NCBI GenBank assembly: GCA_018417955.1
Contig: JACTVC010000028.1
Span: 124,001-188,000, forward strand
DNA length: 64,000 nucleotides
From: Laccaria trichodermophora
Taxonomy: Eukaryota > Basidiomycota > Agaricomycetes > Agaricales > Hydnangiaceae
Direction of reading: 5' to 3'
Both the position numbers and the translations under genes were made by a program. Position 1 is the stretch's first letter. The number at the start of each line of letters is the position of its first letter. Below the pieces are notes generated by a model. That model was not told the DNA's origin and made no database searches. It worked only from the letters and a program-made list of their open reading frames with translations. Of the stretch, positions 26,213-30,149 are shown one piece after another.

Positions 26213-28419
26213 TTTCTTGAGAGTGGATAAATTTCAACGTGGTGGGGAAAGGAGAGAATCAAGAGAGAATTCAACTTCAACGATTTTAATTGACCTTGTC
26301 ATGTGACTCACTTCACGTTCTTGCGTGACTAGACGCGAAATTCTGGTCTCCCACTCAACTCCCACTAGTACTCTACCTTGGAACTGCCAATGCTCCCTGC
26401 AACTTCCGCCACGCTTTGCGTACCACTTTTGTGCTTTCATTCCAGGTTGAGGGGTCCCAGAACAAGATTCTTATTGGACGCTGGGGAGACTAGAGCCGAC
26501 GCGCTGACGAACTCAAATGATCTGAACCACCCAACGTCAATAACATGTCCGGTTCTTCGCCTTCAAGGCTGACGGGGAACATTTTACGTTATCGCAAGAG
26601 TTTGTTATCAATTTCCGTCAAAGTCTTCAAACACCCAGACAGAAATGCAAGCTCAGAAAGTGACTGTATAGCAGCGCTCCGTTTTCCCTTTCCAAGACTG
26701 AAGTTTTGTTTGAGTTCAAGGACGATGGCTAGGCGAAACCGGGTATTTATTCATACTTTAATCATTTTATCATGCACGAGATGATCGTCATAGCCAAATA
26801 CCCCTTCTGAGGAGAAGGTCCCATCAGCCGCAACCCTACTTGGTCCCCCACGGCGAGCCTCGAACGAGCTTCCTGTTCATCCCCCGTCCCTGCCCTCTTG
26901 TCAGTGCCCAGAGACCAAGTTTTGCCCAAGATCAGCCGAACCGTCATTCCCATGCACGGCAACAGGACGAATAGGACGAAATCACCGAAGAATCGCAATG
27001 TTGTGTGTATTTCTCGTACCACCGTTGACGTACACGGCGTACAGCGGCCTGGGCAGATCAAGATGTTGTTGAGCTAGACGCACTCCTGAAGAAGCACTCA
27101 CACATTCTATTTTAAATCAGATTTTACTCGTACAGGGATATCGATTGGCCTGCTGGTTATTGACTATATACAGACCAGTCCAGATCTGACTTATGGCCTT
27201 TGTTTCGGTAAAGAAAATCACCACGTTCCTTCCGCGCACCTGGTATTTCTTCGGTGAATATTCATTCATAAAAACAGTTGCGCTCATACACGAAACGTCA
27301 ATCATGGCCATCAAGAAAGTAACAAGGTGGGGGGATCAAGATAAGAAAGTAGGTGCTGTAAAATATATTTAATGCAACGGTACGTATACAAACAAAAAAC
27401 AAGAAAAGTAGGGAGTGAGTGAGGGGAGTAAAAGGAATCAGAGACACGCTTCTTCTTCATCATGCATCTCTCATAAGTACATAGCTCGACCAATCGAAAG
27501 AACCTCACACCCCACCCCCACACATAAGCCCACGGAGCCCCACATCCGCATCGTCAATCCTCGGAGAAATAAAAGGGAATCAACCCTGCACTGCCAGCAC
27601 GGAGAAAAAAGACCGAAGGTCCAAGATAAGTTATTCAACGACTTGTCTGCATAGATAAGCAAGAAAAAAAAAGCGCGAGGAATCAAATGCGACGACGCGT
27701 TGATGGGTGGTGGTGGTGGTGGTGGTGGTGGTGGTGATGTGGGTCGTGACTTGTTGTGATTGATAGCGGTAGCGGGCATGATGGTCGTCGTCCAACTGAC
27801 ATTATTGACGTGTCTGGATGGAGATGGATAGGAGGCGCAGGTGAGCTTGAGTTGTAACTTGTGCGTGTGGAGACGCGCAGCTCATAGCATGATAGTTCGG
27901 ATCTGGGGAAAGGAAAAGACACACGTCAATCAGCCAGCGAATCGAGATGACGGGGACGAGTAAGTAGGAACAGGACTCACATTCTTACTGACAATCGCAC
28001 TGTCAACGCCAAAGGGACGGAAATAGAGCGGCGTAGCGAGGAAACGAAGGTTGGCGCGTTTCCGAGACGGAATTGACAAATTCAGTTTGTGTTGTGCGTA
28101 GTAGAGGCGACGAGCGGAGGGGGCGGAATCATCAATTTGATTTGGTTCAAGTGTGGGATGGATGGATGTGGAAAAAAAAGAGAAAAGGCAGATGTATGAG
28201 TTTCGGTTATTGGATTAGAATTACAAATGCGGAGAAAGAGAGGAGAGAGAGAAAGAGGAATGGTTAAGAAAGAGAAGAAACCAAAAAACCACCCCTGAGC
28301 CGGCAAAAAGCATGAAATAAACAATAATCCAAAGAGAAAAGAAGAAGCGGAAGGAGATTCTGCATAAATGATAATTAGATGTTTAAAAAAAAGTGAAAAG
28401 GTCCAAGCCAAAGCTAGGG
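26213..28419. other. Intergenic, no supported gene
   Basis: Scattered frames (for example 26762-27061 minus) have no recognised motifs. The right part may be 3' UTR of the G-alpha gene. A GGT microsatellite is listed separately. Confidence 0.5.
27705..27737. repeat. (GGT)n microsatellite
   Basis: About eleven consecutive GGT/TGG triplets. Open frames across it (poly-Pro or poly-His on the minus strand) are artefacts of the repeat. Confidence 0.95.
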
Positions 28420-30149
28420 CTAAATCAACGCCGCTATCTCGAGGTTCGAGCGGAGAACAATGCTATAGCAGAAAAAGCAAAAAAGGACGTTGAGCGTACG
28501 GTTGACGTTTGAATTCGAATAGCGAATACGAGAACGGTATCGTCCAAGAAGATTCAAAAAAAGGAAAAAACGGGGAGGGACAAAAAAGGACAACGAAATC
28601 GAACACTCACTCTGTAGAAAGCAGACAAAACCCATAAGCACAAAGTTAACAGTATCGGATAAACGGCGGCGAAACGCACCTTCGACAGCAGCCATTACGA
28701 CCCGGAGCATCGCAGTATCCGTGGCCGTCGTTATACTTTCATATTTCCAAAAATTTCAACCTCTAAATGCAACGAAAGAGGAGATCGGTACGCACTGAAT
28801 ATATATTTCCCGCTCTTTTGATCTACCAGCTTTCTGGGCGAGCCTCCCGAACCGCCGTTTGAAGTACTCCCGACCTGCACGAATGTCACCTGGCTCCCCA
28901 TCGAAATCCTAGTGATGACGTAATGTCAAGAGTTCCATCGTACGAGGCTGTTGATTGAGTTGCTTACGGGGAAGAAGTTCTTGATGTCAGAAGTAGGAAT
29001 CTTCCTCTCGAAAAGGTCGTTCTTGTTTAGGAAAAGAATCTGGCAGCCGGTTCAAGATGCGTGACGGATTGGGTCAAAGAGCAACTCACAATCGATGTTT
29101 GCTTGAACCATTGTGAATGGCATATTGAGTCCCAGATGGTCATCGCATCTTGCATTTGGTTCTAGGCTTCAAGTTAGGGGGAGGCAATAGGATGATGGAT
29201 GGATAGACGTACCGCGTCCTTATCCTCAACTAAGCACTGATCATACCCACTGAGACTGACGAGGAAGAGAATGCTCGTCACGTCCTGGAAACAGTGTATC
29301 CATTTCCGCCGCTCGCTCTTCTGCCCACCAACGTCGACCATAAGCATCTCGTGGTCTCGCAACGTAAATGTCGTTTCTGTGATTCCAATCGTCCGTGCCC
29401 GGCATCTGATGATATCTTGCTCTGTGGGTTGATATTCGCGGTCGAATAGTCGGTCTAGATGTGAGTAGAAGTAAAGTAGACTATGTGCCACCCTTGGTTA
29501 GTATTCGAGACGAAGGGAAGTTGTCGACGAACTTTTCTGGTAAGGCTGCTTCGTTCCCTCTGCCCCAAGCCTTTTGCACATTCGGGTCATTCCAAAGCGA
29601 TTTGAGGGGGATATAGAATGACAGAGGGAATGGCTCCCCATCACGGATATCCCTCGCACCATCCACAAGATCCAAATAAGGGAGGTTTTCGTCCTTAACC
29701 TTTAGATCCATGTCTTCCATAGAATCGAGTAGATACCGCAGACCCCGGGTGATGTTATCAAATACCAATTGCCGATACGATTCGACCTCCTGTGGCGAGA
29801 ACGGGACTTTGTGTATCAGACGCATTTGCTGTGGCTCTAATTAGAAGGGGCCCAGTAACAGGTAAACGATACGTACCTTGAGGATGGTAGACTTTCCAGA
29901 ATCGCCTGATCCTAGGAGTAGCACCTGTTACGATTCAGATGCATGAAGCCACTTGTCTCGGATGAGTGCGTACGAACCTTGACCTGGGATGCCATCTTGG
30001 CCTTTGCCTGCAGAAGGCGGGGTTAGCGTGTAAAGTGAAATTGAGCGATTGCAACGTACCTCCTTTAGCTGTTTCTCTGCTTCTCTGTGCATCGTCTTAT
30101 CTTGCTCAGAGACCTCCAGACCCGCAGGAACTGACATGCATGAGCCCAT
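28420..30149 (-). CDS. Heterotrimeric G-protein alpha subunit
   Basis: Exons (minus): 30149-30060, 30007-29978, 29924-29877, 29828-29533, 29480-29213, 29161-29090, 29039-28968, 28908-28796, 28735-28680, a single base at 28611, and 28462-28420. They total 1089 nt, 362 aa, the normal length. The N-terminus MGSCMS fits myristoylation at Gly2 and palmitoylation at Cys4. G1 is GSGDSGKST (GAGESGKST is usual). The switch region RARTIGITET carries the arginine finger. G3 is DVGGQ, G4 is FLNKND, and G5 is TTATDT. It would couple receptors to downstream effectors at the plasma membrane. The C-terminus reads VEDIVLRSNLEIAALI only if the one-nucleotide exon is used; direct splicing of the flanking exons puts the tail out of frame. 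There is no pertussis-toxin cysteine. Confidence 0.93.
28463..28679 (-). other. Two introns flanking a one-nucleotide exon in the G-alpha gene
   Basis: Intron 28679-28612 (68 bp) begins gtgcgt and ends tttctacag. The single exonic A is at 28611. Intron 28610-28463 (148 bp) begins with the consensus donor gtgagt and ends ctgctatag. Joining G (28680), A (28611) and C (28462) makes GAC (Asp), followed by IVLRSNL, matching the family consensus. Confidence 0.75.

What the first reader, a model, noticed from the sequence alone, without database searches (positions are those of the whole stretch)
28463..28679. Single-nucleotide exon in a G-alpha gene
The exons ending at 28680 and starting at 28462 cannot be joined in frame: G plus CATTG gives a premature, unrelated tail. 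Between them lie a canonical acceptor (tttctacag, ending 28612) and a perfect donor (gtgagt, starting 28610), separated by one base, A at 28611. Including it gives GTC GAA GAC ATT GTT CTC, that is VEDIVL, exactly the conserved G-alpha C-terminal pattern, and 362 aa in total. One-nucleotide exons are exceptionally rare. An alternative history is gain of a second intron one base after an existing acceptor, related to but distinct from nested twin introns.
Basis: partly seen in the sequence, partly recalled or inferred. Interest (0 to 1): 0.92.

Follow-up and report, generated by a model that had tools for sequence, protein, structure and literature searches.

The report
One-letter exon in mushroom G-alpha gene
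A mushroom signalling gene contains an exon of a single DNA letter that is needed to keep the protein in frame, appears conserved across mushroom-forming fungi, is missed in the genome-derived protein models examined, and sits just before two alternative endings that would change the receptor-facing tail of the protein.

Summary
On the minus strand a canonical acceptor (...CTACAG, ends 28612), one base A (28611) and a canonical donor (GTGAGT, starts 28610) lie inside a Galpha gene (362 aa, 11 exons). Without the A the end is frameshifted; with it the alpha-5 helix reads VED-IVLRSNLEIAALI. New here: (1) the gene has a second, distal pair of terminal exons (27999-27981, 27902-27882) encoding DAIVSKNIRTIML, also in phase 2, so both endings need the A. 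A public short-contig protein, 345/348 identical to the window's up to the junction, carries exactly the distal ending. (2) Of 176 listed homologues, 69 of 69 on short, transcript-like contigs read VED plus one of the two endings; 0 of 107 others, nearly all genome-derived, do. Many of their errors (28 end VEE*, 6 frameshifted, 15 Gly for Asp) are what a missed A exon predicts. (3) The two endings do not form two clades (at least 9 forced changes), which favours alternative splicing of one gene. Single-nucleotide exons are known in plants and Fusarium. One shared by two alternative Galpha tails I did not find in ten paper searches. Raw reads were not available.

The parts
30060..30149 (-). Galpha exon 1 (ATG at 30149; MGSC N-terminus)
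   Evidence: assembled model
29978..30007 (-). exon 2
29877..29924 (-). exon 3 (P-loop GSGDSGKST)
29533..29828 (-). exon 4
29213..29480 (-). exon 5 (DVGGQ)
   Evidence: PF00503 match
29090..29161 (-). exon 6
28968..29039 (-). exon 7 (NKND)
28796..28908 (-). exon 8
28680..28735 (-). exon 9, ends ...GTC GAA G (phase 1)
28612..28679 (-). intron 9, 68 nt, GTGCGT...CTACAG, possible branch site TTAAC
28611..28611 (-). single-nucleotide exon A, middle base of an Asp codon in both isoforms
   Evidence: transcript-like homologues 69 of 69 with Asp
28463..28610 (-). proximal-isoform intron, 148 nt, GTGAGT...CTATAG; retained it gives VEE*
28420..28462 (-). proximal terminal coding exon: (GA)C ATT GTT ... 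= DIVLRSNLEIAALI*
   Evidence: same 14-aa tail in P0004
28000..28610 (-). distal-isoform intron, 611 nt, GTGAGT...GTTGACAG, skips the proximal exon
   Evidence: product seen in P0001
27981..27999 (-). distal alternative 19-nt exon TGCGATTGTCAGTAAGAAT = (GA)T GCG ATT GTC AGT AAG AAT
   Evidence: P0001 tail DAIVSKNIRTIML
27903..27980 (-). intron between the two distal exons, 78 nt, GTGAGT...CCCCAG
27882..27902 (-). distal terminal coding exon ATC CGA ACT ATC ATG CTA TGA = IRTIML*

Best explanation
The A at 28611 is a real, apparently constitutive single-nucleotide exon of a GPA4-type (name as in public annotation) heterotrimeric G-protein alpha subunit of an agaricomycete. It is joined to exon 9 (G|A) and, through its own GTGAGT donor, to one of two alternative terminal exon sets. 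The proximal one (28462-28420) gives DIVLRSNLEIAALI; the distal one (27999-27981 plus 27902-27882) gives DAIVSKNIRTIML. Both start in phase 2, so the one base is shared and indispensable, and the switch replaces everything after the alpha-5 Asp. Shown at sequence level: the exon, its sites, both frames; at protein level, conservation and both products. Inferred: that the introns are removed one after the other under intron definition (one base cannot hold both splice-site complexes), that the choice is regulated, and that the two tails couple the same Galpha to different receptors or with different strength.
For: Frame and sites. Both endings need exactly one extra base, and only A gives the Asp. 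P0001, on a 1629-nt contig that is shorter than the 2268-nt genomic span 30149-27882, matches the window's protein at 345 of 348 residues to the junction and then reads DAIVSKNIRTIML. 69 of 69 transcript-like homologues read VED plus a proximal (40) or distal (29) tail; 0 of the 107 others do. In the full-length search alone the transcript-like count is 54 of 54. 28 of the 107 end VEE*, which is what G+A+GTRA read through gives. Six frameshifted models all decode to the proximal pattern when one A is put between exon 9 and the tail: 6 of 6 with only residues seen in transcript-like tails, against 20 of 20000 random peptides and 0 of 17 read-through tails tried of 36 (looser first version). For Pisolithus P0161 against transcript-like P0113 (bodies 329/333) 12 residues fit exactly. 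Bodies near-identical with different tails: Suillus P0071 (proximal, one extra residue) and P0101 (distal) 345/348; Lactarius tabidus P0156 (ends IRDIML, the distal last exon only) and P0068 (proximal) 337/337. Tail type is scattered on the body tree: 16 changes, at least 9 forced by strong branches. No other close copy was found in the genome. Of 20 Galpha loci fetched, the alpha-5 region was found in 4, and all 4 run uninterrupted over the Asp codon.
Against: No raw reads or cDNA of this species were read; transcript-like is my label from short contigs without genome names. P0001 differs at 3 of 348 positions, so it may be a sister species. A proximal transcript of this very species was not seen; the nearest with the same 14-aa tail is P0004, 88% identical overall. 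One VEE* protein, P0030 (Flammulina filiformis, nr only, no contig listed), could come from a cDNA and would then support intron retention. No orthologous genomic DNA was reachable, so the one-base exon in other species is inferred from proteins. Tail labels are somewhat clustered: 2-3 of 500 shuffles as low on the tree, and the nearest body has the same tail class for 34 of 40 proximal and 14 of 29 distal rows. The homologues are capped lists, the best 120 of 1443, 184 and 7965 hits. Receptor function of the tails is untested.
Confidence: 0.92

Rival explanations
1. Assembly or sequencing error: a base is missing from exon 9 or the last exon, and the true gene has one ordinary intron there.
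For: A single indel would make the same phase clash; no raw data were checked.
Against: Two separate downstream exons both need the same base. The same clash is visible in models of other species (28 VEE*, 6 frameshifts). A strong acceptor and donor flank the one base.
Confidence: 0.01
2. [D1,2] spliceosomal twin intron: internal intron GTGCGT...ACAGAG splits the donor G|TGAGT of an outer intron, which removes the A.
For: The string ACAGAGTGAGT can be parsed this way, and models P0032 and P0055 (VEVS...) look like use of the AGAG acceptor (inference).
Against: The product is VEHCSPLEPRDSG..., unlike the Galpha tails; 0 of 69 transcript-like proteins look like it.
Confidence: 0.01
3. The main product is the VEE* form: intron 10 is kept and a Galpha without its last 13 residues is made; the one-base exon is a by-product.
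For: 28 of 107 models end VEE*, one of them (P0030) possibly from a cDNA, and retention gives an immediate stop here too.
Against: 0 of 69 transcript-like proteins end VEE*. Both tails are conserved (mean pairwise identity 0.76 and 0.65), which suggests that both are translated.
Confidence: 0.03
4. The one-base exon is real, but proximal and distal tails belong to different genes or lineages rather than to regulated alternative splicing in one gene.
For: Tail labels are mildly clustered; for most relatives only one tail was seen.
Against: Both exon sets lie behind one gene with no other close copy in its genome. Suillus and Lactarius tabidus bodies at 345/348 and 337/337 carry different tails. 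At least 9 forced changes on the tree.
Confidence: 0.05

Closest known systems
Arabidopsis APC11 and land-plant VPS55 single-nucleotide exons (PMC4674806, part 1 of 3 of the text read; PMC8831610, passages read)
   Same: One base between AG and a GT donor, required for frame, conserved across species, missing from genome annotation; the VPS55 donor is GTRAGT as here, and retention gives a second product in some plants.
   Different: Different kingdom and genes; missing the base alters the N-terminal part in VPS55; in what I read it is not described as the shared donor for two alternative terminal exons.
Fusarium CYP621A single-nucleotide exon (PMC12940212, parts 1-2 of 3 of the text read)
   Same: Fungal, one base (G) in a conserved motif, phase-1 to phase-2 clash, read support, models wrong.
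   Different: Ascomycete P450 in one genus; base G; no alternative tails in what I read. The paper calls itself the first fungal case; this one is in Basidiomycota, with strong signatures in five orders and weaker ones in two.
Vertebrate GNAO mutually exclusive terminal exons 7.1-8.1 / 7.2-8.2 (PMC5896119, passages read)
   Same: One Galpha gene with two alternative C-terminal codings.
   Different: No one-base exon mentioned; the exchanged piece is an exon pair that arose by duplication. Here only the 12-13 residues after the alpha-5 Asp are exchanged, with 18% mean identity between tail classes.
Stwintrons of filamentous fungi (PMC5639578, passages read)
   Same: Two introns in immediate contact that must be removed one after the other.
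   Different: No splice-site consensus is interrupted in the frame-correct parse; one coding base is left between the introns.
Mitochondrial single-base exons, such as placozoan cox1 (PMC5436844, search listing only)
   Same: An exon of one base.
   Different: Organelle gene, not a nuclear spliceosomal gene (from the listing and general knowledge).
Recursive splicing at zero-length exons (recalled, no call)
   Same: Removal of the first intron puts a new donor at the exon end.
   Different: Here a base stays in the mRNA, so it is an exon.

Membership tests
Galpha subunit | Galpha domain and GTP-binding motifs over the full length | tested here: met
   PF00503 over cut-off at this locus; Galpha-o structure 6oik aligned over 14-357, E 8e-85
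Single-nucleotide exon | One base between a canonical AG acceptor and a GT donor, flanked by two canonical introns | tested here: met
Single-nucleotide exon | The base is needed for the reading frame of a conserved protein | tested here: met
Single-nucleotide exon | The base is present in mature transcripts | tested here: met
   Protein level only, in relatives: 69 of 69 transcript-like homologues have the Asp; nearest is P0001, 345/348. Raw reads not seen.
Single-nucleotide exon | Mutation of the base changes the cDNA accordingly | not testable with these tools
   bench test
[quoted passage not shown]
   parse possible, product VEHCSPLEP...
Recursive splice site (zero-length exon) | Acceptor AG directly abuts donor GT and leaves no base in the mRNA | tested here: not met
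   AG-A-GT; the A is in the codon
Galpha with alternative C-termini (GNAO-like) | Two C-terminal codings from one locus | tested here: met
   both codings in the window; distal product in P0001; no other close copy; pairs. Both products from one strain not seen.
Galpha with alternative C-termini (GNAO-like) | Alternative exons arose by local duplication | tested here: inconclusive
   0.18 identity between the tail classes over 12 positions
Galpha with alternative C-termini (GNAO-like) | Tails differ in receptor coupling | not testable with these tools
   bench test

The most novel reading that the evidence does not exclude
The one-base exon is a conserved regulatory node. It cannot be recognised as an exon, so it forces stepwise splicing; after intron 9 is removed its rebuilt donor chooses between two receptor-coupling tails or, if the next intron is kept, a Galpha cut off at the alpha-5 Asp. 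One gene would then give a three-way switch of receptor coupling across mushroom-forming fungi.
Probability: 0.35. Interest if true: 0.9.

Novelty: new variant of a known kind. Interest (0 to 1): 0.78.

Why it matters
Few nuclear single-nucleotide exons are documented in the papers I saw (two conserved plant genes and one Fusarium P450). This one is in a core signalling gene, leaves strong signatures in five orders and weaker ones in two, is rendered correctly in none of the 107 (nearly all genome-derived) models examined, and feeds two alternative tails in the part of Galpha that touches receptors. It gives a natural system for asking how a spliceosome joins a one-base exon. It also means that the C-terminus of this Galpha, the part that sets receptor choice in animals (recalled), is wrong in those models.

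Tried and rejected
Sequencing error, [D1,2] stwintron, intron retention as the main form, and two paralogues were tested and set aside (see rivals). A second allele or near copy in the same genome was sought by DNA and protein: the DNA search gave only the locus itself and two short 73-74% fragments. Orthologous genomic DNA was sought in viral contigs and genome contigs: none. NCBIfam gave only small_GTP below its cut-off. Ten paper searches: in the listings no report of a one-nucleotide exon or alternative C-terminus in a fungal Galpha. Searches listed only 30 of 731 and 12 of 647 papers; one search found no paper with all four terms, and one paper, on phosphatases. This is the open-licence part of PMC only.

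Branch sites: 9 of 12 introns have a YTNAY within about 8-60 nt before the acceptor; introns 8, 10-proximal and 10-distal do not. Both alternatives may thus be weak, but the consensus is crude. Of four poly(A)-like hexamers tested, none lies between the proximal stop and the distal exon; the first are at 27373 and 27369. I draw nothing firm from this.

The homologue labels are mine: transcript-like means the longest contig is at most 3167 nt from jgi, lgn or ena; the rest count as genome-derived, though P0030 has no contig and its origin is unknown. In the tree 66 of the 69 transcript-like rows were used; three fragments (P0135, P0139, P0140) were left out, and P0128 and P0137 are long branches. 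In one search P0161 was first classed as other; one search shows it to be a frameshift, hence 6. The read-through control (0 of 13) was uninformative, because a tail that starts with Gly fails at the first residue, and its pattern allowed two residues (G, H at position 7) not seen in transcript-like tails. One search repeats it with observed residues only and without the first position: 0 of 17 read-through tails (of 36), 20 of 20000 random peptides, 6 of 6 frameshifted tails.

Full report
What is there. On the minus strand the window holds a complete Galpha gene. I assembled 11 exons from 30149 to 28420, all with GT-AG introns, giving 362 aa. It matches PF00503 and aligns with solved Galpha-o over residues 14-357.

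The one-base exon. Exon 9 ends in phase 1 (GTC GAA G, 28680) and the last proximal exon begins in phase 2 (CA TTG, 28462). Between them stand CTACAG | A | GTGAGT at 28612/28611/28610. Leaving out the A gives VEALFSARTSR*; including it gives VEDIVLRSNLEIAALI*. C, G or T would give Ala, Gly or Val in place of the Asp. The solved Galpha-o aligned also has Asp here (residue 341).

A second ending. The nearest public protein, P0001, sits on a contig of 1629 nt, too short for the 2268 nt of genomic gene. It equals the window protein at 345 of 348 residues up to VE and then reads DAIVSKNIRTIML. That peptide is encoded further downstream in the window: a 19-nt exon 27999-27981 after ...TTGACAG, a 78-nt intron and a 21-nt coding end 27902-27882. 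This ending also starts in phase 2, and without the A it reads VEVRLSVRISELSCY. Two different downstream exons therefore demand the same single base. The distal tail is one residue shorter than the proximal one.

Homologues. I took the 176 distinct proteins listed by three searches (the best 120 of 1443, 184 and 7965 hits) and classed their ends. Of 69 on short, unnamed contigs, 69 read VED followed by a proximal-type (40) or distal-type (29) tail. The search was made with the tail region and so favours such tails, but alone, made with the full protein, the figure is 54 of 54. Of the 107 others, nearly all genome-derived, none reads VED plus either tail: 28 end VEE*; 36 run into intron 9 (VEG...); 15 have a correct tail with Gly for Asp; 11 have the proximal tail with extra residues; 2 have an odd distal tail; 2 begin VEVS; 5 are frameshifted; 5 stop earlier; 3 are other, one of which (P0161) is a sixth frameshift. 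P0030, one of the VEE* proteins, has no contig and could be from a cDNA.

What the errors tell. VEE* is what exon 9 + A + GTRA yields, since GA-GTRA reads GAG TRA; in the window it is exactly that. VEVS fits use of the overlapping AGAG acceptor before TGAGT. The frameshifts fit the direct join without A: given the peptide, I asked whether any DNA reading it after G could read the proximal pattern after GA. With only residues seen in transcript-like tails, 6 of 6 could, against 20 of 20000 random peptides starting with Ala; of the 36 read-through tails 17 were tried without the first position and 0 passed (which replaces a poorer control). For Pisolithus orientalis P0161, 12 residues fit the tail of transcript-like P0113 exactly (bodies 329/333). 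In Somion occarium two models with 317/317 identical aligned bodies show both signatures, VEE* and frameshift. The Gly-for-Asp models look like transcripts in which an aligner took the first G of the intron for the lone A; that is inference.

Breadth. One species per order was looked up. Agaricales (Panaeolus, VEE*), Russulales (Bondarzewia, VEE*), Polyporales (Somion, both signatures), Boletales (Pisolithus, frameshift) and Atheliales (Athelia, frameshift) show the strong signatures. Jaapiales (Jaapia, Gly for Asp) and Gloeophyllales (Gloeophyllum, extra residue) show only the weaker kinds. Of 20 Galpha loci of the same genome that I fetched, the alpha-5 region was found in 4, and these are uninterrupted at the Asp codon; for the other 16 I cannot say.

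One gene, two tails. No other close copy of the gene was found in the genome. In Suillus, P0071 (proximal, with one extra residue) and the unnamed P0101 (distal) share 345/348; in Lactarius tabidus, P0156 (which ends in the distal last exon, IRDIML) and the unnamed P0068 (proximal) share 337/337. On a tree of 66 bodies the tail label needs 16 changes, at least 9 forced by strongly supported branches. It is mildly clustered: mean of shuffles 21.7, 2-3 of 500 as low, and the nearest body has the same tail class for 34 of 40 proximal but only 14 of 29 distal rows. This fits one gene sampled in two forms, with close species tending to the same form. Both tails are conserved: mean pairwise identity 0.76 proximal and 0.65 distal, against 0.18 between classes. 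The swap begins directly after the Asp that aligns with Galpha-o residue 341. From established knowledge (recalled), the rest of this helix and the C-terminus make the main contact with activated receptors.

How it most likely works. Fungal introns are short and recognised as introns (recalled; PMC5639578 passages state it for Pezizomycotina). Intron 9 (68 nt) has a pyrimidine-rich acceptor and a TTAAC about 33 nt upstream. Its removal leaves ...GAAGA|GTGAGT, whose donor then pairs with the proximal acceptor (148 nt) or the distal one (611 nt). The order and any regulation are inferred. Skipping the A or keeping the next intron cuts off the tail.

Against what is known. Single-nucleotide exons are documented in APC11 and VPS55 of land plants (PMC4674806, PMC8831610) and CYP621A of Fusarium (PMC12940212); mitochondrial ones appear in search listings. 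Galpha genes with alternative terminal exons are known in vertebrates (GNAO; PMC5896119). The [D1,2] stwintron parse was tested and fails on the product. In the listings of ten searches of the open PMC library I found neither a nuclear one-base exon in Basidiomycota nor alternative tails in a fungal Galpha. The class is therefore known; the combination, the breadth and the absence from the models examined are new as far as I could see.

Limits. No reads, no orthologous DNA, species unnamed, capped homologue lists, and the transcript label rests on contig length and missing genome names.

Noticed in passing
L010 (G000:C21:714589-714716) and L011 (C21:810132-810244) against window 28056-27935: Two degenerate copies (73-74%) of the stretch around the distal 19-nt exon lie elsewhere on the same contig, apparently inside a low-copy repeat whose two copies look alike by eye; the DNA search gave no match to the proximal exon there.
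   Followed up: partly
G000, 66 PF00503 matches on many contigs: The genome holds a large set of Galpha-like genes, many of them divergent; no other close copy of the window gene's type was found.
   Followed up: partly
window 28610-28540, minus strand: A pyrimidine-rich tract (73% C+T) follows directly downstream of the donor of the one-base exon; the translated tails of P0032 and P0041 hint at a similar tract in Armillaria relatives. It may help donor recognition.
   Followed up: no
P0005, P0011 and 26 further models: The VEE* ending is annotated in 28 of 107 models, one (P0030) possibly from a cDNA; whether some cells really make this tail-less Galpha is open.
   Followed up: partly
window about 27705-27737, plus strand: A GGT simple repeat downstream of the gene's coding end.
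   Followed up: no
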